Position numbers and translations under genes: made by a program. A DNA stretch of 64,000 nt from Pseudomonas alloputida (lineage in GTDB: Bacteria > Pseudomonadota > Gammaproteobacteria > Pseudomonadales > Pseudomonadaceae): assembly GCF_021283545.2 (NCBI RefSeq), contig NZ_CP128540.1:2019501-2083500 (forward strand), given 5' to 3'. The notes under the pieces were generated by a model. That model did not search any database. It saw nothing but the letters and a program-made list of their open reading frames with translations, and was not told where the DNA came from. Of the stretch, positions 12,101-22,062 are shown one piece after another. Position 1 is the first letter of the stretch; each line of letters opens with the position of its first letter.

Positions 12101-14755
12101 ATGAGTGACTCCGCCCGCGCCGATGCGCTGTTGGCCAACCTCCCACGCACCGGCCGGGGCCGGCTGAAGGTGTTCCTGGGCGCTGCCCCCGGCGTCGGCA
12201 AGACCTTCGCCATGCTCCAGGCCGCACACGCCCAGCAACGCCAGGGCGTGCAGGTGTTGGCCGGGGTGGTCGAAACCCATGGCCGCGCCGAAACCGAAGC
12301 GTTGCTCGGAGGGCTGCATCAGCAGCCCTTGTTGCGCAGCCAGTACCGTGGCGTCACCCTTGAGGAAATGGACCTTGACGGCCTGCTGCGTGCCGCGCCG
12401 GCCTTGGCCCTGGTGGACGAACTGGCCCACACGAACGCCCCCGGCAGCCGCCACGCCAAACGCTGGCAGGATGTGCAAGAACTCTTGGCCGCGGGCATCG
12501 ACGTGTACACCACGGTCAACGTCCAGCACCTGGAAAGCCTCAACGACAAGGTCCGCGACATTACCGGCGTGCAAGTGCGCGAGACCCTGCCGGACTGGGT
12601 GCTGCAGGAAGCGTTCGAGCTGGTGCTGATCGACCTGCCTCCGCGAGAGCTGCTCGAACGCCTGCGTGAAGGCAAGGTGTACGTGCCCGAGCAGGCAAGG
12701 GCGGCCATCGATGCGTATTTTTCGCAAACCAACCTCACCGCCCTGCGCGAGCTGGCCATGCAGACCGCCGCTGCTCAGGTCGATGCCGACCTGGCCCACG
12801 GCTATCGTCAGCGCGGCCAGGAGGCGCCGGCCTTGCGCGGCCGGTTGCTGGTGGGCATAGACGGTGACGACCAGGCCGAACGCCTGGTGCGCCATGCCAG
12901 CCGCGTGGCCCAGCGCCGCCACCTGCCCTGGAGCCTGGTGCATGTGGACAACGGCCGCCTGCGTGACGAAACCGCACGGCATCGTTTGCAAGCCGCGCAG
13001 CAACTGGCCGAGCGACTGGGCGGGGAGGTGGTACTGCTGCGTGCTGGCGAAGTGGCCCGTACGCTGATCCAGCATGCTGTCGAGCGGCGGGCCAGCCTGG
13101 TGCTGGTCGGGCAGTCCCGCAACCGCCTGCGTAGGCGTTTGTTCGGCGCGGGTGTGGCGGCGCGGCTGCTGCGCGAAAGCCGTGGCCTGGAAATCAACGT
13201 GCTGGACCGCGACGTGCAGCCGCCAGCGCCGCGTTCAGCCGTGCGGCGGGTGTGGGTGTGGCGTCATTACCTGCTTGCGCTGCTGGCCACCGTGATGGCT
13301 GCGGGTCTGGCCTGGGCGGTGTCCAGTGTGCTCGCGTTGCCCAATATCTCGCTGGTGTTCCTGGCGGCGGTGTTGCTGGTCGCGGTGCGCAGTAGCCTGG
13401 GACCTGCGCTGGCTTGCGCCGCGCTGTCGTTCCTGGTCTATGACTTCCTGTTCATACCGCCCAACTTCTCGTTCACCATCCAGCGCGAAGAAGACGTGCT
13501 GACACTGGTGTTCTTTCTGTTGATGGCTGCGCTTACCGGCAACCTGGCCGCGCGCCAGCGTCGCCAGTTGCAGGCGCTGCGCGAGACCCAGGCACAGACC
13601 AGCCAGTTGCTCGACCTGTCTCGCCGGTTGACGGTAGCCACCGACCGCCAAGCCATATTCAAGGCTGCCGGCCAGCACCTGGACGGGTGGCAGGACGCCC
13701 AGGTGTGCTTGCTGGAGCGCAACGCCGAAGGCCAGTTGCAAGTGGCCAGCGGGGAAGCCTGCACCTTCAGCGACACCGAACGGGCGGCTGCCGATTGGGC
13801 CTGGCAGCATGGGCAGGCCGCCGGTCACGGCAGCGATACCCTGCCTAATGGCCGCTGGTGGTGGTGGCCATTGGCGGTAGACGATCAGCCGCTGGCGCTG
13901 CTGGGTGTGCGCCCGCGCAACGGGCAGCCGCTCAGCGACCCACGCCGGCGCCTGCTCACCGCCCTAGGCCAGCCCCTGGCCCAGGCCCTGGCCCGCGCAC
14001 GCCTGGCTGAACAGCTGGAAGCCGCACGCCTGCACGGCGAAACCGAGCAACTGCGCAGCGCCCTGCTGGCTTCCGTATCCCATGACTTGCGCACGCCGTT
14101 GACCGCCATGCGTGGCAGCATCGACAGCCTGTTGGCGTTGGGCGATGCGATCCCGGCTGAAGACCGCCGCGAGCTGCTGGAGGGCACCCGTAACGAAGCC
14201 GAACGCCTCGATCGCTACATCCAGAACCTGCTGGACATGACCCGCCTGGGCCATGGCGGCCTCAAGCTGGCCCGCGACTGGGTGGCCCCGGCGGATATCG
14301 TCGGCAGTGCGCTCAACCGCCTGCGGGTGGTGCTGGCGCCGCTGCGTGTGCACACGGACGTGCCGACCGAGCTGCCATTGCTGTTCGTGCATGCGGCGTT
14401 GATCGAGCAGGCACTGGTCAACGTGCTGGAAAACGCCGCACGCTTTTCGCCGGCCAATGGTCGGCTTGAGCTGCAGGTGGCGGTGCATGACGACCAACTG
14501 CGCTTGACCGTCAGCGACCAGGGCCCCGGCATTCCTGAAGCCGACCGCGAGAAAATCTTCGATATGTTCTACACCGCCGCCCGTGGCGACCGCGGCGGGC
14601 AGGGTACCGGGCTGGGCCTGGCTATCTGCCAGGGCATGATCGGTGCCCATGGCGGGCAGATTCTGGTGGGCGAAGGCATTGATGGCCAAGGCACCAGCAT
14701 CACTCTATGCTTGCCGCTGCCTCCTCAACCTGAAGCCGAAAGCGAAACCCCATGA
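12101..14755 (+). CDS. kdpD: Potassium-responsive sensor histidine kinase KdpD
   Basis: 884 residues with the full KdpD layout: N-terminal KdpD domain with a P-loop (FLGAAPGVGKTFAML, residues ~26-40), a UspA-like domain (~245-370), four closely spaced membrane helices of the DUF4118 type (~385-490), a GAF-like domain (~515-625), and the kinase core with the phosphorylated His661 in SVSHDLRTPLTAMRGSIDS, N-box NVLENAARFSP and GQGTGLGLAICQGMIGAHGG. It phosphorylates KdpE and senses K+ supply. The next gene starts inside its stop codon (ATGA). Confidence 0.97.
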   Translation: MSDSARADALLANLPRTGRGRLKVFLGAAPGVGKTFAMLQAAHAQQRQGVQVLAGVVETHGRAETEALLGGLHQQPLLRSQYRGVTLEEMDLDGLLRAAPALALVDELAHTNAPGSRHAKRWQDVQELLAAGIDVYTTVNVQHLESLNDKVRDITGVQVRETLPDWVLQEAFELVLIDLPPRELLERLREGKVYVPEQARAAIDAYFSQTNLTALRELAMQTAAAQVDADLAHGYRQRGQEAPALRGRLLVGIDGDDQAERLVRHASRVAQRRHLPWSLVHVDNGRLRDETARHRLQAAQQLAERLGGEVVLLRAGEVARTLIQHAVERRASLVLVGQSRNRLRRRLFGAGVAARLLRESRGLEINVLDRDVQPPAPRSAVRRVWVWRHYLLALLATVMAAGLAWAVSSVLALPNISLVFLAAVLLVAVRSSLGPALACAALSFLVYDFLFIPPNFSFTIQREEDVLTLVFFLLMAALTGNLAARQRRQLQALRETQAQTSQLLDLSRRLTVATDRQAIFKAAGQHLDGWQDAQVCLLERNAEGQLQVASGEACTFSDTERAAADWAWQHGQAAGHGSDTLPNGRWWWWPLAVDDQPLALLGVRPRNGQPLSDPRRRLLTALGQPLAQALARARLAEQLEAARLHGETEQLRSALLASVSHDLRTPLTAMRGSIDSLLALGDAIPAEDRRELLEGTRNEAERLDRYIQNLLDMTRLGHGGLKLARDWVAPADIVGSALNRLRVVLAPLRVHTDVPTELPLLFVHAALIEQALVNVLENAARFSPANGRLELQVAVHDDQLRLTVSDQGPGIPEADREKIFDMFYTAARGDRGGQGTGLGLAICQGMIGAHGGQILVGEGIDGQGTSITLCLPLPPQPEAESETP

Positions 14756-15447
14756 GCCAGTCCGCCACCCTGTTGGTCATCGACGATGAACCGCAGATCC
14801 GCAAGTTCCTGCGTATCAGCCTGGCCTCGCAAGGCTACAAGGTGCTGGAGGCCGCCACCGGTGCCGAAGGGTTGGCCCAGGCGGCACTGGGCAAGCCGGA
14901 CCTGGTGGTGCTCGACCTGGGGCTGCCGGACATGGACGGCCAGCAGGTACTGCGTGAGTTGCGCGAATGGAGTGCAGTGCCGGTGATGGTGTTGTCGGTG
15001 CGTGCCAGTGAAGTGCAGAAGGTCGATGCGCTGGATGGTGGTGCCAATGACTATGTGACCAAGCCGTTCGGTATCCAGGAGTTTCTCGCGCGTGTGCGGG
15101 CGTTGCTGCGTCAGGTGCCACAAGCCGGCGGCTCGGAAGTGGCAGCCAGCTTTGGTCCGCTGACGGTCGATTTTGCCTTCCGCCGGGTGACGCTCGACGG
15201 TGTGGAGGTGGCATTGACACGCAAGGAGTATGCTTTGCTGGCGATATTGGCCGGGCACCCCGGGCGGGTGATTACCCAGCAGCAGTTGCTCAAGGATATC
15301 TGGGGGCCGACCCATGCGGAGGATACCCACTACCTGCGCATCGTGGTCGGGCATCTGCGACAGAAGCTGGGCGATGACCCCACGGCGCCGCGGTTCATCA
15401 TTACCGAGGCGGGGGTTGGCTACAGGTTGGTGGCGCCGACAGCATAA
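14752..15447 (+). CDS. kdpE: Response regulator KdpE (OmpR family)
   Basis: 231 residues: receiver domain with acidic pair Asp11-Asp12, phospho-acceptor Asp55 in LVVLDLGLPDMDG and Lys in YVTKPFGIQEFLARV, then an OmpR-type winged-helix domain ending HYLRIVVGHLRQKLGDD and FIITEAGVGYRLVAP. It activates kdpFABC in known systems. Four-base overlap with kdpD. The gene converges with a LysR regulator; the 61-bp gap contains only a short AGCCC/GGGCT hairpin. Confidence 0.96.
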   Translation: MSQSATLLVIDDEPQIRKFLRISLASQGYKVLEAATGAEGLAQAALGKPDLVVLDLGLPDMDGQQVLRELREWSAVPVMVLSVRASEVQKVDALDGGANDYVTKPFGIQEFLARVRALLRQVPQAGGSEVAASFGPLTVDFAFRRVTLDGVEVALTRKEYALLAILAGHPGRVITQQQLLKDIWGPTHAEDTHYLRIVVGHLRQKLGDDPTAPRFIITEAGVGYRLVAPTA

Positions 15448-15508: not shown

Positions 15509-16414
15509 TCAGGCCCTGGGGGGCTCCTTCTCGAACAGCTGGCGCATGACTTCCAGGTAGCGTCGCGCGCCCAGGCCCAACGGGCGCGACTTGATCCAGA
15601 TGATGTCTACCCACAAGCGCAGGCGGTTGGCCATGTTGTCGAAGCGCACCTCGGCCAGTGCGCCCGAGGCAATCAGCGGTTCGACCAATGGCTGCGGCAG
15701 GTAGGCCCAGCCCAGCCCGGACTGCACCAGGTCCAGCGTGGCGAGGTAGCTGTCGGTCAGCCAGATGCGCCGGGACAGCACCATGCGCGGGTCCGATCCG
15801 GTGGCCTTGCCCGAAGCCACGATGATCTGCCGTTGTTCGGCAAAGGCCTCTTCAGGCAATGGCGAACCGCTGTTCTGCCCGGCTGGATGGCGCGGTGAGG
15901 CAACGGCTACCAGCAGTTGGCTGCCGGCCTCGAGGAATGACTCGCGCTCATCGATGCCGGGCCGTTCGAACACCAGGGCCAATTGCACACTGCCGTCATG
16001 CAGCAGGCGAATGGCTTCGGTCTGGGTGGCCGAACGTACCTCGACTTCCAGGCTGGGAAATGCCTGGGCGAGGATTTCTAGCGGCTGGCTCCAGCGGCCA
16101 GTCTGCAACTCGGGCGCCATGGCGATGGTCAGGCGCTTTTCCAGGCCTTTGTGCAATTGCAGGGCCTGGGCATCGAGCAGGTTGAGTTGGCAGATGACCT
16201 GCCTGGCCTGGGGCTCCAGCGCCAGGGCGGCGTTGGTGGGCAAGGCTTTGCGCGTGGCCCGGTCGAACAGGGGCAGGTCCAGTTCCGCTTCCAGTTGGGC
16301 GATTGCCATGCTCACGGCTGAAGGCACACGGCCCAGCTTGCGGGCGGCGGCGGAGAACGAGCCGGCATCGAGCACCGCGAGGAAAATCGCCAGGGAGTCG
16401 CTGGTAAAGGCCAT
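15509..16414 (-). CDS. LysR family transcriptional regulator
   Basis: 301 residues. The N-terminal winged HTH is clear (LAIFLAVLDAGSFSAAARKL and SAVSMAIAQLEAELDLPLFD, residues ~7-58), followed by a type-2 periplasmic-binding-like effector domain from about 88 (RLTIAMAPELQTGRWSQPLE). It is divergent from the flavin oxidoreductase at 16505 with a 90-bp gap that includes a perfect palindrome GATGATCATC at 16431-16440, so regulation of that gene is a reasonable inference. The effector is unknown. Confidence 0.9.
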   Translation of the reverse strand: MAFTSDSLAIFLAVLDAGSFSAAARKLGRVPSAVSMAIAQLEAELDLPLFDRATRKALPTNAALALEPQARQVICQLNLLDAQALQLHKGLEKRLTIAMAPELQTGRWSQPLEILAQAFPSLEVEVRSATQTEAIRLLHDGSVQLALVFERPGIDERESFLEAGSQLLVAVASPRHPAGQNSGSPLPEEAFAEQRQIIVASGKATGSDPRMVLSRRIWLTDSYLATLDLVQSGLGWAYLPQPLVEPLIASGALAEVRFDNMANRLRLWVDIIWIKSRPLGLGARRYLEVMRQLFEKEPPRA

Positions 16415-16504
16415 TGTCAGTAAACCTGATGATGATCATCTTTTATTGCTAAAAATTATGAACATTAATGCACCTGCAGGACAGTCCCCTCAACGGAGAA
16501 AAGC

Positions 16505-17728
16505 GTGCACAGACCAACCGCGTGGCATGTCACCCACTGGAGTAGCGACCCGTTCAGCCTCGGTGCCTACAGTGCCTTGCTGCCTGGCGGATCGCCGTTG
16601 CATCGAAGCGCCCTGGGCCAAGTGCTGCATGGGCGCTTGGTCATCGCTGGAGAAGCTTGTAATGCCAGCGCTCCGGCAATGACTCATGGTGCGTGGAATG
16701 ATGGGCTGCGTGCCGCCGAGGCAGCCGTGAGTGCCGGTGCGAGCAAGGTGATCGTGATCGGTGCGGGGTGTGCAGGCTTGGCTGCCGCTCAACGCTTGCG
16801 GGAAAGGGGTGTCGATTGCACTGTGCTGGAGGCGCGTGGGCGAACGGGTGGGCGCACGCACACTGTCGAGTTGGGTGGCGTGAAAGCAGATGAAGGTGCG
16901 GCATGGCTTCAGCATTTTGCCGAGAACCCATTGGCCGCTGTTGCACTTCAACATGGCTTGGCTTGCGTCGAGACCGATTTCAGTTGCCCGCTTGCAGCGG
17001 CACGCGGCGGGGCGTTGCCGGATATCGACGCCGCCTGGGATGCCTTGACCAGGCGTCTCGATCGGCAACAACCTTTGTCTGACGCGATCGATGGCTACAT
17101 GGCCACACTCGACCCCGCGCTCGCGCGTGCCACGCAGTTCGCCATCGACGCCAACCTTGTACTGGAAGCGTGTTTGCCCGTCGAGCAACTGTCGGCCTGT
17201 GCCTTGGATGAAGAGGGGGTCGGGCATGGTGATCGTATGCTGCCAGGCGGCTACAGCGAGCTTGTCGACTTGCTGTCGAAGCACCTGGATATCCGCCTGA
17301 ACAGTCCTGTCACCCACATCGACTGGTCGAGCGCGCGCGTCATGGTGAATGAAGACGTGTGCGACTTCTGCATTTGCACAGTCCCGGTGGGGGTTCTGAA
17401 AACGTTGCGCTTTACCCCTGCGTTACCTGAAATACAGCAGGGAGCGTTGGCGCATCTGGGGATGGGCAAGCTGGAGAAAGTGATTCTGCAGTTCGATGAG
17501 CGATGGTGGCCGTGCTCACCCTCAGGCTACCTACGCTGGTACGACGTACCCGCCAGTTGGGGAGAATGGCTGGACCTGACCGATGCTGTCGGAAAGCCCA
17601 CCATTGCCGGGCTGATCGCCGCCGATGCGATCGAGCGGCAGTTCACCGGGCGCACCGATGAACAGGTGGCCATGGCCGCGTGTGAGGCATTGCAGGCGTG
17701 GGCCGCAGCCGTCGGGCCCACGCCTTGA
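16505..17728 (+). CDS. Flavin-containing amine oxidase with circularly permuted domain order
   Basis: 407 residues. The FAD Rossmann motif (KVIVIGAGCAGLAAAQRL, GxGxxG at residues 86-91, and VLEARGRTGGRTHT) is normally at the very N-terminus of flavin amine oxidases, but here it is preceded by about 75 residues that match the usual C-terminus: THWSSDPFSLGAYSALLPG (from ~10) and LVIAGEACNASAPAMTHGAW with NDGLRAAEAA (46-74), the second FAD-binding segment. The protein then ends at DEQVAMAACEALQAWAAAVG, the point where that segment would normally begin. No residues appear lost, so this looks like a true permutation. GTG start with GGAG about 8 bases upstream. Substrate unknown; divergent LysR regulator next door. 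Confidence 0.8.
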   Translation: MHRPTAWHVTHWSSDPFSLGAYSALLPGGSPLHRSALGQVLHGRLVIAGEACNASAPAMTHGAWNDGLRAAEAAVSAGASKVIVIGAGCAGLAAAQRLRERGVDCTVLEARGRTGGRTHTVELGGVKADEGAAWLQHFAENPLAAVALQHGLACVETDFSCPLAAARGGALPDIDAAWDALTRRLDRQQPLSDAIDGYMATLDPALARATQFAIDANLVLEACLPVEQLSACALDEEGVGHGDRMLPGGYSELVDLLSKHLDIRLNSPVTHIDWSSARVMVNEDVCDFCICTVPVGVLKTLRFTPALPEIQQGALAHLGMGKLEKVILQFDERWWPCSPSGYLRWYDVPASWGEWLDLTDAVGKPTIAGLIAADAIERQFTGRTDEQVAMAACEALQAWAAAVGPTP

Positions 17729-17731
17729 CAC

Positions 17732-20662
17732 TTACAGACCTTCGCCCAGCACCCGGTCAATGCTGTCGACAAAGTAGTCCACGCTCGCACGGCTGGTGCA
17801 CATCGGCGGCTTGATCTTGAGGATGTTCAGGTAATCGCCGGTCGGCTGCATGAAGATGCCCAGGTCACGCAGGCGATCGCACAGCATCATGGTTTCTTCG
17901 GTGGCCGGCTCCAGGGTGGTGCGGTCGCGCACCAGTTCCAGACCCAGGTAGAAGCCCGAGCCATGTGCCGCGCCGGCCAGCGGGTGCTTGTCGACCAGCG
18001 CCTGCAGGCGTGCCTTGAAGTAGCGCCCGGTGTCACGGGCGTTGTCCCACAGGCCTTCCTCCTGCATGACATCCAGCACTGCCATGCCGATGCGGCAACT
18101 GACCGGGCTGCCACCGGCCGAGGAGAAGAAGTAGCCCTCGGCCTCCAGCGCCTCGGCGATTTCGCGACGGGTGATGACCACGCCCAGCGGCTGGCCGTTA
18201 CCCATGCCCTTGGCCATGGTAATGATGTCCGGCACCACGCCCTGTTCCTCGAAGCCCCAGAAGTACTCGCCCAGGCGGCCATAGCCTACCTGCACTTCGT
18301 CGGCGATGCACACCCCGCCGCGGGCGCGGACCTTGGCATAGGCTGCGCGCAGGTAGCCTGCGGGCAGCGAGATACCGCCGGCATTGCCGTACACCGGTTC
18401 GCAGATGATGCCCGCCAGCTGACGGCCACGGGCGTCGAGGTCAGCCAGCTTGGCGTCGACGTCTTGCAGGTAGTCGGCGGCGCTGTCGGCCCCGCGGAAG
18501 CGGCCGCGGAAGGTGTTCGGTGCTTCGACCGGGTGAACCCAGTCCGGGCGGGTTTCCAGGGCTTGCGGGTTGTCGGCGATCGACGTGGAGATGGCATCGG
18601 TGGCCACCGACCAGCCGTGGTAGGCCTCCAGCACACTGAGCAGATCGCGCCCGCCACTGTAGGCCCAGGCCAGGCGAATCGCCAGGTCGTTGGCCTCGGT
18701 GCCGCTGTTGACCATGAACACCCGGTCGAAACCTTCGGGGGCCAGGTCCAGCAGGCGCTCGGAGAATTCGGTGATTGCTGCGTAATGGAAGCGCGAGTTG
18801 GTGTTCAGCAGCGACCACTGCCGCGCCGACTCGGCAACCATGCGTGGATGGCCATGGCCCAGCACTGCGACGTTGTTGAGCATGTCCAGGTAGGAACGGC
18901 CCTGCATATCGATCAGGTAGTTGCGCCAGCCACGTTCAATGTGCGGCGGTTGCGCATAGTAGTGCTTCTGCGAGCGGGCGAAGCTGGCATCGCGGCGGGC
19001 CAGCAGGGCTTGCGGATCGGGTAGCGGCTCGGCATCGCAATCGAAGCCCAGCAGTGCGGCTGGTGACGGGCACAGGGCCAGCCAGGCGGCGGCCTGTGAC
19101 GGCGTGGCGAAGCGCGGCGGCTGGCTGCCATTGTCCAGGCATACCTGCACGCTGAGGAAGCCGCAGCTGCTGCCCAGGGCCTGGCCTTTTTCCACGGCCT
19201 GGCCGTCTGCCGGTGCGTCTTCCAGGCCTTGCAGCCACAAAGCCCAATGCGGGGTGCGCAGGCAGCCCCGGCCGTCGCCGCTGTGCTGCCAGGTGCCGGC
19301 TGCCGGCGCTTGTACCGGGCTGCCGTTGGGCACATGCAGCTCGACGAAAAGGGCGCAGGTGGCGGGCTCCTCGGGGCGATCGATATGGGTTTGCGACAGG
19401 CGATACTGCCCGTGCAGGCTGCAGGCCGGGGCGGCTTGCGAAGTCAGCAGATGCTGGTCGTAACCGGGTTGCTCCCAGTTGCCGGCCTCGAAGTGTTTGC
19501 TGAGTACTCCCAGGTCCACCCGTGTGACAGCCAGCCCGGCCAGCTCGGGGAGCAGGGGGGCACAGTCGTTCCAGTCCGGCGCCGCGGGTTGCAGGCCCGC
19601 AGCCTGCAGAATGGCCGCCTCCATCAGGGCGAAAGGCACGGCGGTGGCCGTGTCGAAAATTTCCCATTCGTGGGCAATGTTGTCGCGGGTGTACTGGTTG
19701 CCCGGGTCGACGGTTAGCTGTTGTTCGCTGCTCAGCACCAGCACGGCAGCGCGGTTCAGCACCAGCGGCCACAGGGCGCGCAATTCGGCTTCGGTCAGCG
19801 GGTTGAGCGCCTGGTAGGCCTGCACGGCTGGCAGGATGCGCAGGGGGTCGCCCTCGGCGTGGTGCAACAGCGCAGCGCAGGTCACCGACAGGTCGGCGAT
19901 ACGCCAGGTGCGCAGCAGGTCGCCGAAATCGATCACGCCTTGCAGTTGCCACTGACGCTGGGCATCACGGGCCCACACGGTGTTGTCGTCGGTGATGTCC
20001 AGGTGCACGGCCTGACTGGGCAGTTGATCGACCAGCGGCATCAGGTGCTCGTTGGCCTGTCGCGTGGCGTGTTCGATGCGGGCGCGCTGCCCGCCGTCCT
20101 GCAGCACCGGTAGCAGGTGATCGATCAGTGCCCCGGCATGCTGCGGGTCCCATTGCAAGGTACGCGCAAGGCCCGGGTGATCGAAATGGGCAAGCGCCTT
20201 GTCCAGCTTTGCACAGAGCCCGCCCAGTTCAGCCATCAAGCGCGGCTCCATGTGCTTGAGGCGGGTCAGCGGTTGGCCTTCGATGTAATCGAGCAGGCGC
20301 AGGCGCAGTGGTTGCGCGTCGATGTCCAGTTCCAGCAACCCCATGCCGTTGTGGGCTGAGCGCACGGCGGGTACCGGCAAACCTTGATCGCGCAGGAAGG
20401 CCAGGGCGGCGTGCTGGGCTTCAAGCTCCAGTTGGGCGTAGCTGCCGTGGCAGGCCTTCAGCACATAGCCACCCTGCGGTGTGACCACGCGAAAGTTCAG
20501 GTCCTGCTGGCTGCCCAGTACCGAAAGGTTGCCGGCAAGGCCATAGTGGGCCTGCAGCACGGCGTGTGCCTGGGCTTCGCTCAGCGTTGGGCTGGGCTGG
20601 CCGGAGCGCTGGATCAGGGTGGCCAGGGCAGGGGAAGCGGGCTGGTGTTGTGGACTGGACAT
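17732..20662 (-). CDS. Three-domain fusion: APH-type kinase, M23-like domain, class-III aminotransferase
   Basis: 976 residues. Residues ~30-310 resemble aminoglycoside/choline phosphotransferases (AVHLDITDDNTVWARDAQRQ and GVIDFGDLLRTWRIADLSV, the Brenner and DFG-like motifs). Residues ~430-540 resemble the M23/lysostaphin fold (VPNGSPVQAPAAGTWQHSGD, EKGQALGSSCG) but lack the HxxxD and HxH metal ligands, so this part is probably not a peptidase. Residues ~555-976 are a PLP class-III aminotransferase with CIADEVQVGYGRLG and the cofactor lysine Lys818 in IITMAKGMGNGQPLG. I recall this domain combination being annotated as a PLP-dependent transaminase acting on phosphorylated or amino substrates; the actual substrate is not evident. 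Converges with the amine oxidase gene, 3 bases apart. Confidence 0.85.
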   Translation of the reverse strand: MSSPQHQPASPALATLIQRSGQPSPTLSEAQAHAVLQAHYGLAGNLSVLGSQQDLNFRVVTPQGGYVLKACHGSYAQLELEAQHAALAFLRDQGLPVPAVRSAHNGMGLLELDIDAQPLRLRLLDYIEGQPLTRLKHMEPRLMAELGGLCAKLDKALAHFDHPGLARTLQWDPQHAGALIDHLLPVLQDGGQRARIEHATRQANEHLMPLVDQLPSQAVHLDITDDNTVWARDAQRQWQLQGVIDFGDLLRTWRIADLSVTCAALLHHAEGDPLRILPAVQAYQALNPLTEAELRALWPLVLNRAAVLVLSSEQQLTVDPGNQYTRDNIAHEWEIFDTATAVPFALMEAAILQAAGLQPAAPDWNDCAPLLPELAGLAVTRVDLGVLSKHFEAGNWEQPGYDQHLLTSQAAPACSLHGQYRLSQTHIDRPEEPATCALFVELHVPNGSPVQAPAAGTWQHSGDGRGCLRTPHWALWLQGLEDAPADGQAVEKGQALGSSCGFLSVQVCLDNGSQPPRFATPSQAAAWLALCPSPAALLGFDCDAEPLPDPQALLARRDASFARSQKHYYAQPPHIERGWRNYLIDMQGRSYLDMLNNVAVLGHGHPRMVAESARQWSLLNTNSRFHYAAITEFSERLLDLAPEGFDRVFMVNSGTEANDLAIRLAWAYSGGRDLLSVLEAYHGWSVATDAISTSIADNPQALETRPDWVHPVEAPNTFRGRFRGADSAADYLQDVDAKLADLDARGRQLAGIICEPVYGNAGGISLPAGYLRAAYAKVRARGGVCIADEVQVGYGRLGEYFWGFEEQGVVPDIITMAKGMGNGQPLGVVITRREIAEALEAEGYFFSSAGGSPVSCRIGMAVLDVMQEEGLWDNARDTGRYFKARLQALVDKHPLAGAAHGSGFYLGLELVRDRTTLEPATEETMMLCDRLRDLGIFMQPTGDYLNILKIKPPMCTSRASVDYFVDSIDRVLGEGL

Positions 20663-20875: not shown

Positions 20876-21451
20876 TCAGAGGAGGAACTTGAATGCTGAA
20901 AGCAGTTTCACTGTCTCGGGAAGCTTCTGCTGAAGCAGCCTGTCGAGATACTGCTGTACGCTGTGCGGTGGGTTCTTCAGCGATATTCGCTGCCGCTGGG
21001 CAGCTTCGAGGACTGCTGCCTTGTCCAGGTCCCAAAGGTCAGCGATGAAGTCGTCCGGATGCAAGGGTTCAATATCGAAGGCACCAAGAACCGCCTTGGA
21101 AAAATCCTTCAAATTGAAGGTGACGATGACCGAAGCGTTGCACTTGATTGCAGCTGCGAGAACATGTCGATCATCCCTATCTGGCAAGTCCAGCCCTTCG
21201 ACCAGTGAATCGTAGTCAGTGACGAGTGCATCAGGCACCGCAGCATCCATCAGCGATGACGTGCGATCCAAATGTTCAGGCGTGAGGTCAGGTCGGTTGA
21301 GTAGCAGATTGCGCTTCCACTCGTCATGAATGCTCGCTGACCAACGTGCCCGGTAGATGCCCGTCAGCGCTAGGTTCATCAGGAAATCACGCAGTGGAGC
21401 AGGGTAAAGTACATTCGCGTCGTATATGGCCGTGAAGGGCGAGTGCTTCAT
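20876..21451 (-). CDS. PIN domain protein, likely toxin-type ribonuclease
   Basis: 191 residues with the acidic residues of a PIN nuclease: FTAIYDANVLYPAPLRDFL (first Asp), SASIHDEWKRNLL (Glu/Asp), and GLDLPDRDDRHVLAAAIKCN followed by VIVTFNLKDF, the usual C-terminal PIN signature. Longer than a minimal VapC (about 130 aa) because of a C-terminal extension. Its ATG overlaps the stop of the upstream HTH gene by four bases (ATGA), as in toxin-antitoxin operons. PIN toxins cleave RNA; the target here is unknown. Confidence 0.82.
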   Translation of the reverse strand: MKHSPFTAIYDANVLYPAPLRDFLMNLALTGIYRARWSASIHDEWKRNLLLNRPDLTPEHLDRTSSLMDAAVPDALVTDYDSLVEGLDLPDRDDRHVLAAAIKCNASVIVTFNLKDFSKAVLGAFDIEPLHPDDFIADLWDLDKAAVLEAAQRQRISLKNPPHSVQQYLDRLLQQKLPETVKLLSAFKFLL

Positions 21452-21915
21452 TCGTACCCCATCTTCAATTCCTGAGCTTGGGCTGCCAGCGCATCTATCG
21501 CAGCGCGGCTCACCCCATCACGTTTGTCCTTGTAGGCAACCAGGTCTGAGAATTTGACACGACGATGGCGGCCTGTCTTGGTGTGCGGAATCACCGCTTC
21601 GTCGAGCAGCTTTACCAAGTGCGGCCGGGAGACGTTAAGCAGGTCTGCTGCTTCCTGGGTAGTTAGTTCGGCGTGGATTGGAACGACTTTGACTGAGTTA
21701 CCCAAGGCCAGTTCGCTGAGAATTTCGCCGAATAGGCGTAGGGCGAAAGTAGGTACTTCAACAACCTGGCGCTGATTTTCCTCGTTGAGCAGTTCGATCC
21801 GTTGGGTATCTGATTTTGTCGAGAGGAACGCTGCCAGCGTGCGGCTTGACTCGACTGCCACGGCAATTTCTTTCTCGTCAGGAAGCACATGGCTAGAGAG
21901 GTTGGCGGTGGTCAT
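21448..21915 (-). CDS. HTH (excisionase-type) protein, likely antitoxin of the PIN gene
   Basis: 155 residues from the ATG at 21915, chosen because GGAG lies seven bases upstream; the frame stays open 16 codons further. A helical N-terminal half (LAAFLSTKSDTQRIELLNEE) is followed by a MerR/excisionase-like HTH: AELTTQEAADLLNVSRPHLV then KLLDEAVIPHTKTGRHRRVK and FSDLVAYKDKRD. Order (DNA-binding partner first) and the four-base overlap with the PIN gene fit an autoregulated toxin-antitoxin module. The upstream DNA at 21970-22020 is AT-rich compared with neighbours, which fits acquisition. Confidence 0.78.
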   Translation of the reverse strand: MTTANLSSHVLPDEKEIAVAVESSRTLAAFLSTKSDTQRIELLNEENQRQVVEVPTFALRLFGEILSELALGNSVKVVPIHAELTTQEAADLLNVSRPHLVKLLDEAVIPHTKTGRHRRVKFSDLVAYKDKRDGVSRAAIDALAAQAQELKMGYE

Positions 21916-22062
21916 GGGCATCTCCAGAGCGGTATCGATTGCGGGGCTGTGGCGACGATGCAACAGCCTGAGTTCGAGTTATATTCGAAATATTCGCAAA
22001 TCGCAATAAACGAAACGACCGATCAAAGGATGATTGCTTGGCGAACACGCACCCTTTCCCTA

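What the first reader, a model, noticed from the sequence alone, without database searches (positions are those of the whole stretch)
16505..17728. Circularly permuted flavin amine oxidase
The protein begins with the segment that normally ends flavin amine oxidases (THWSSDPFSLGAYS, then IAGEACNASAPAMTHGAWND and GLRAA) and only afterwards carries the N-terminal Rossmann motif VIVIGAGCAGLAAAQRL. It then stops exactly where the moved segment would normally start. Both FAD-binding halves are kept and nothing seems lost, so this looks like a permutation by tandem duplication and trimming, not a truncated gene. The two halves of the FAD site are adjacent in the fold, so a permuted enzyme is structurally reasonable. 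A LysR regulator is divergent from it.
Basis: partly seen in the sequence, partly recalled or inferred. Interest (0 to 1): 0.82.

Follow-up and report, generated by a model that had tools for sequence, protein, structure and literature searches.

The report
Circularly permuted flavin amine oxidase family
This Pseudomonas gene encodes a flavin enzyme of the amine oxidase family whose usual last 75 amino acids sit at the front of the protein instead of the end, and the same natural rearrangement turns up in related genes from several groups of bacteria.

Summary
The 407-aa ORF at 16505-17728 is a natural circular permutation of a flavin amine oxidase (PF01593). Its first 76 residues alone match PF01593 positions 372-441 of 443; 21 of 21 tails tested match the family. 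A tail profile hits the C-terminal parts of LSD1/LSD2, spermine oxidase, FMS1 and MAO; a core profile hits such chains from their Rossmann start. AlphaFold gives one compact domain (pLDDT 94.9, pTM 0.92), and a sequential structural alignment covers residues 75-406 only. A wrong start, pseudogene or misassembly is unlikely: the start codon is shared, the moved segment is under purifying selection, and independent assemblies agree. Of 375 distinct relatives gathered by similarity, 287 have the segment first, 60 last, 28 none recognised, 0 both. Permuted forms occur in Pseudomonas, Actinomycetota and an alphaproteobacterial clade. One origin is not rejected (AU p 0.179, 0.176), though the best trees need 3 and 6 changes. 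Ten paper searches found no earlier report. FAD binding, activity and substrate are inferred, not shown.

The parts
16505..17728 (+). Permuted flavin amine oxidase gene, 407 aa plus stop
16495..16498 (+). GGAG, likely ribosome-binding site, 6 nt before GTG
   Evidence: sequence; start codon compared with relatives
16505..16732 (+). Moved segment, residues 1-76: canonical C-terminal part (W12, D15-P16, G20-Y22, A48-G49-E50, last helix)
16568..16570 (+). Y22 codon, aromatic substrate-side position (corresponds to LSD1 Y761 by recalled numbering)
   Evidence: alignment, conservation
16652..16654 (+). E50 codon of the AGE motif (FAD contact in canonical members, recalled)
16733..16741 (+). New junction, residues 77-79, where the old C-terminus meets the old N-terminus
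16742..17713 (+). Core, residues 80-403: canonical N-terminal Rossmann part to the last helix before the moved segment
16760..16777 (+). GxGxxG dinucleotide-binding motif, residues 86-91
17477..17479 (+). K325 codon, flavin-site lysine (corresponds to LSD1 K661 by recalled numbering)
   Evidence: alignment, conservation
15509..16414 (-). Divergent LysR regulator, best NCBIfam match AceR at 224.6 bits, below its cut-off of 500; regulation of the oxidase is inferred

Best explanation
The gene encodes a naturally circularly permuted, single-chain FAD-dependent oxidase or dehydrogenase of the PF01593 amine oxidase fold. The canonical C-terminal segment (a strand with the W-x2-D-P-x3-G-x-Y motif, the AGE FAD motif and the last helix) comes first, is joined by about three residues to the Rossmann strand that normally starts the protein, and the chain ends in the loop where that segment would normally begin. 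Shown: the order, homology of both pieces, the shared breakpoint, conservation, selection on the moved segment, and a confident one-domain model. Inferred: the segment folds back onto its own core and completes the FAD site, and the K325 and Y22 positions support hydride transfer from an amine to FAD, which O2 or another acceptor reoxidises. The substrate is unknown; a small amine or diamine is a guess. The event that produced the permutation is unknown.
Against: No biochemical data. The superposition was sequential, so overlay of the moved segment on its canonical place was not shown directly. The tail alone does not fold confidently (pLDDT 56.3), and its alignment was thinner (21 rows against 70). 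Single-sequence phmmer gave the tail only about 7 bits against LSD1. Three of 27 permuted rows lack the flavin-site lysine, so not all need be amine oxidases. A domain-swapped dimer is not excluded. Gene neighbourhoods gave no substrate.
Confidence: 0.88

Rival explanations
1. Fused remnants of tandem amine oxidase genes that act between chains: the moved segment completes the FAD site of a partner subunit (domain-swapped dimer), not that of its own core.
For: Not excluded by any search; the order of pieces is what a tandem duplication trimmed at both ends would leave.
Against: The single-chain model is confident throughout, tail included (blocks of residues 1-80 average pLDDT 91-98), and the junction is short, with 0-4 residues between the two models in 178 entries. 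No intermediate with two copies was seen (0 of 375).
Confidence: 0.08
2. Wrong start, pseudogene or assembly artefact: the first 76 residues are not part of a working protein.
For: GTG start; some database homologues begin four codons earlier at an ATG that is ACG here (P0001); core-only internal starts are possible in principle.
Against: dN/dS 0.10-0.21 in the tail; the same start codon position in relatives; the same order in 33 of 34 loci of named genomes; a leader before the segment in the alphaproteobacterial clade.
Confidence: 0.02
3. Several independent permutations at the same loop, rather than one ancient permutation inherited and transferred.
For: The best trees need 3 changes of order and 6 changes, and in both 0% of 200 bootstrap trees need only one.
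Against: Holding all permuted rows as one clade is not rejected (AU p 0.179 and 0.176), the starred branches force only one change, and deep branches are long and weakly supported. The breakpoint is the same in all clades aligned.
Confidence: 0.4

Closest known systems
Flavin-containing amine oxidoreductases, PF01593 (LSD1/LSD2 amine oxidase domain, spermine oxidase, FMS1, maize polyamine oxidase, MAO-A/B, bacterial monoamine oxidases)
   Same: Both sequence pieces, the fold of residues 75-406, the FAD motifs and (in most) the flavin-site lysine
   Different: The C-terminal segment of about 75 residues comes first, so the chain ends lie in a different loop. Among the 60 PDB sequences shown in each none matches a query of permuted order from tail through core
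Circularly permuted FMN-bind1 domains in multi-flavinylated proteins (PMC11334425; passages seen)
   Same: A natural circular permutation in a flavoprotein, seen in AlphaFold models
   Different: Another domain, named FMN-bind1; a C-terminal helix of the first domain is displaced to the end of a multi-domain chain
Natural circular permutations in general (for example permuted methyltransferases and GTPases; recalled)
   Same: Same segments in rotated order with the old ends joined
   Different: Not previously reported for the amine oxidase fold in the ten paper searches made here

Membership tests
Flavin amine oxidase PF01593 | Score above the curated Pfam cut-off | tested here: met
   183.1 bits against a cut-off of 19.8
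Flavin amine oxidase PF01593 | N-terminal-type Rossmann GxGxxG, E at the strand end and GGR motif | tested here: met
   G86, G88, G91, E109, G116, R117 invariant in 27 permuted and 29 canonical rows
Flavin amine oxidase PF01593 | C-terminal-type segment with AGE motif and final helix | tested here: met
   Present, but at the N-terminus:
Flavin amine oxidase PF01593 | Flavin-site lysine | tested here: met
   K325 here; K in 24 of 27 permuted and 27 of 29 canonical rows
Flavin amine oxidase PF01593 | Usual linear order of the segments (typical rather than formally defining) | tested here: not met
Flavin amine oxidase PF01593 | Binds FAD and oxidises an amine | not testable with these tools
   Needs purified protein
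Natural circular permutation | Both segments homologous to a canonical family, in rotated order | tested here: met
Natural circular permutation | Old ends joined, new ends in one loop, nothing duplicated or lost | tested here: met
   0-4 residues between the models at the junction in 178 entries; loop alignment; 0 of 375 with both copies
Natural circular permutation | Three-dimensional overlay of both segments on a canonical structure | tested here: inconclusive
   Residues 75-406 overlay; the tool aligns in sequence order, so residues 1-74 were not tested; tail-alone model too poor
LSD1/KDM1 histone demethylase | SWIRM domain besides the amine oxidase domain (recalled) | tested here: not met
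   No such Pfam domain at E up to 0.01
MAO-A/B | Covalent FAD through a cysteine in the C-terminal segment (recalled) | not tested
   No residue-level alignment to MAO was printed for that stretch

The most novel reading that the evidence does not exclude
Flavin amine oxidases were circularly permuted several times independently, at the same loop, in Actinomycetota, Alphaproteobacteria and Gammaproteobacteria, so that chain ends in this loop are an evolutionarily favoured alternative topology of the fold. In some lineages the permuted form is exported by the Tat route with its leader fused directly to the FAD-site segment.
Probability: 0.35. Interest if true: 0.8.

Novelty: new variant of a known kind. 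Interest (0 to 1): 0.7.

Why it matters
PF01593 includes the MAO and LSD1 drug targets. A natural, conserved permutation that divides and reconnects the FAD site shows that this fold tolerates moved ends, gives a ready-made series for tests of folding and cofactor loading, and exposes an annotation blind spot: where sources name these proteins, they call them, for example, flavin monoamine oxidase family protein, FAD-dependent oxidoreductase or tryptophan 2-monooxygenase. Whether it arose once or several times at one loop is directly testable.

Tried and rejected
Wrong start, pseudogene and misassembly: rejected (same order in many separate assemblies).

Intermediates with the segment at both ends: none in 375 distinct ORFs and proteins. 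One canonical ORF, L094, showed a second, 6.6-bit hit ahead of its C-terminal one; taken as chance.

Substrate from neighbours: 20 neighbouring ORFs from 10 of the 33 loci L012-L044 were scanned; the ORFs were picked by length and place, and 7 of 20 had no Pfam match at 1e-5, so some are probably not genes. MFS transporters appear in three loci (L018, L024, L028); LysR and AraC-type regulators, a GST-like gene and NUDIX genes (L041, L042) also occur, but nothing recurs across clades.

Fold of the tail alone: low confidence (pLDDT 56.3, pTM 0.38), so no fold search was run with it.

Number of origins: two trees and two AU tests did not settle it. L107, the most divergent permuted row, has a very long branch and its place is unsure.

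Literature: ten searches were read as listings; of three papers I saw passages (PMC4432964, PMC11334425, PMC1282579). None describes a permuted amine oxidase. The library lacks most subscription journals and preprints, so this is not proof of absence.

Full report
What was checked. The ORF at 16505-17728 on the + strand is intact and 407 aa long; GTG 16505 is the first ATG, GTG or TTG after the upstream stop and GGAG lies six bases before it. Relatives L012-L016 and L022 have GTG, and L017, L024, L025, L028 and L032 have ATG, at the same codon. Some database homologues start four codons earlier at an ATG (P0001); in the window that codon is ACG.

The order is permuted. Pfam matches the protein to PF01593 with 183.1 bits in three stretches. 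All 21 tails match PF01593; the window's tail covers profile positions 372-441 of 443. The tail profile hits the C-terminal parts of solved amine oxidases: LSD2 703-772 of 776 (E 2.9e-15), LSD1 572-652 of 660 (9dbp), FMS1 437-501 of 516, spermine oxidase 414-477 of 494, and MAO-B 380-450 of 520, where further residues follow. The core profile hits LSD1, LSD2, spermine oxidase, MAO and others from their Rossmann start onward. A single-sequence search had already shown this order against LSD1, with the tail stretch too weak to count alone.

Nothing is lost. In an alignment of 27 permuted and 29 canonical proteins (canonical order made in the script for alignment only), G86, G88, G91, E109, G116 and R117 are invariant in both groups. 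W12 is W in 27 of 27 and 28 of 29; G20, G49 and A63 are invariant; position 50 is E or D in all; position 22 is Y in 17, W in 7, F in 1 and A in 1 of 27 (the four commonest shown), against Y in 28 of 29. The flavin-site lysine K325 is K in 24 of 27 and 27 of 29. In ten canonical ORFs whose core match reaches the end of the model, 2-7 residues lie between core and tail matches. Permuted entries end close to the same point: of 177 of 178 entries shown, 175 end within 19 residues of the core match; the others end 23 and 88 residues after it (duplicates included). At the new junction 0-4 residues lie between the two models in 178 of 178 entries.

Selection. Against five relatives (L012-L016) dN/dS is 0.10-0.21 in the moved segment and 0.11-0.15 in the core, so the segment is translated and constrained.

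How widespread. The first protein search found 723 proteins at E up to 1e-3 and listed 120: 119 of 120 carry the segment in front (P0077 only part of it) and one 303-aa fragment, P0088, has none. The GTDB scan gave 34 loci: 33 permuted (23 loci from 22 Pseudomonas genomes, 10 from Actinomycetota bins) and one weak match without the segment, L045. Within the genus, 5 of 199 genomes have a permuted copy at E up to 1e-30, G001 two; two more genomes, G044 and G154, match through canonical proteins. Sampled from the phylum of an actinomycetotal bin, 11 of 396 genomes (the centre genome G203 included) have a permuted copy at E up to 1e-30; the copy in G476 is judged from query coordinates alone. In Pseudomonadota it is 5 of 398 at E up to 1e-25, the own genome included (G753 judged from query coordinates). 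Two of these, L134 and L140, led to an alphaproteobacterial clade: the second protein search matched 7598 proteins and listed 120, and 120 of 120 are permuted; the rest was not examined. There the segment often follows a leader with an arginine pair: a loose pattern fits 103 of 120, a strict xRRxx[FLVIM] pattern 57 of 120; no signal predictor was run. In even samples this clade is in 2 of 289 genomes of the class and 6 of 149 of the family; all 7 loci are permuted, one being the gene of L134 again. Another family of Pseudomonadales has a divergent example, L107. Over all 375 distinct ORFs and proteins classified (L155-L161 not counted), 287 have the segment first, 60 last, 28 none recognised and none both. 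The sample was gathered by similarity, largely to permuted queries, so these are not frequencies of the whole family.

Origin. The window's clade is well supported (100/100, 23 rows) and joins Pseudomonas with Actinomycetota; the Pseudomonas rows form one group in it (99/95). With the patchy distribution this suggests transfer between phyla (inference; the root is not known). The permuted rows are not one clade in either best tree: 3 changes of order, 6, and in both no bootstrap tree of 200 has only one. Holding them together is nevertheless not rejected (AU p 0.179; 0.176), and well-supported branches force only one change.

Function. An FAD amine oxidase or dehydrogenase is the likely activity, by fold and retained site. 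The window's protein shows no leader before the segment, so it is probably cytosolic (inference). The divergent LysR gene is next to the oxidase in L012-L016, and a relative of it lies about 1.8 kb upstream in L022; the convergent class III aminotransferase is found in L012-L016 only (of 33 loci). The best NCBIfam match of the LysR protein is AceR, at 224.6 bits against a cut-off of 500. AceR responds to short diamines (recalled), so a diamine is a weak guess. The genome has four other PF01593 places, two of them matching the profile over 1-441 in canonical order, so the permuted gene is an addition and not a replacement.

Verdict. A real, conserved natural circular permutation of a well-known enzyme family, not found described in the ten paper searches made. 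It is a new variant of a known kind; its biochemical function remains to be shown.

Noticed in passing
L134, L140, P0121-P0240: An alphaproteobacterial clade (names in the listing include Roseobacter, Ruegeria, Roseibium, Jannaschia) of permuted amine oxidases with Tat-like leaders directly before the moved segment.
   Followed up: partly
L066, L077 (Actinomycetota): Permuted amine oxidases whose ORFs show an RR and lipoprotein-like leader (ending LAAC or LASC) before the moved segment.
   Followed up: no
L107 (G608, another family of the same order), - strand 1480-2799: Divergent permuted copy with a very long branch; possibly a separate permutation.
   Followed up: partly
L028 and L030 (Pseudomonas sp. 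URMO17WK12:I2): One genome with two permuted copies, each 63% identical to the window's (G001).
   Followed up: no
L033 4369-4992 + and 4977-6224 +: In P. veronii a GST-like ORF overlaps the start of the permuted oxidase ORF, a possible two-gene operon.
   Followed up: no
window 20876-21963, - strand: PIN_3-domain gene and an overlapping HTH_17 gene, resembling a toxin-antitoxin pair.
   Followed up: no
window 17732-20662, - strand: 976-aa fusion of an APH-type phosphotransferase domain and a class III aminotransferase (PRK06149 family), convergent with the oxidase.
   Followed up: no
window 12101-15447, + strand: KdpD-type sensor kinase and an overlapping response regulator gene.
   Followed up: no
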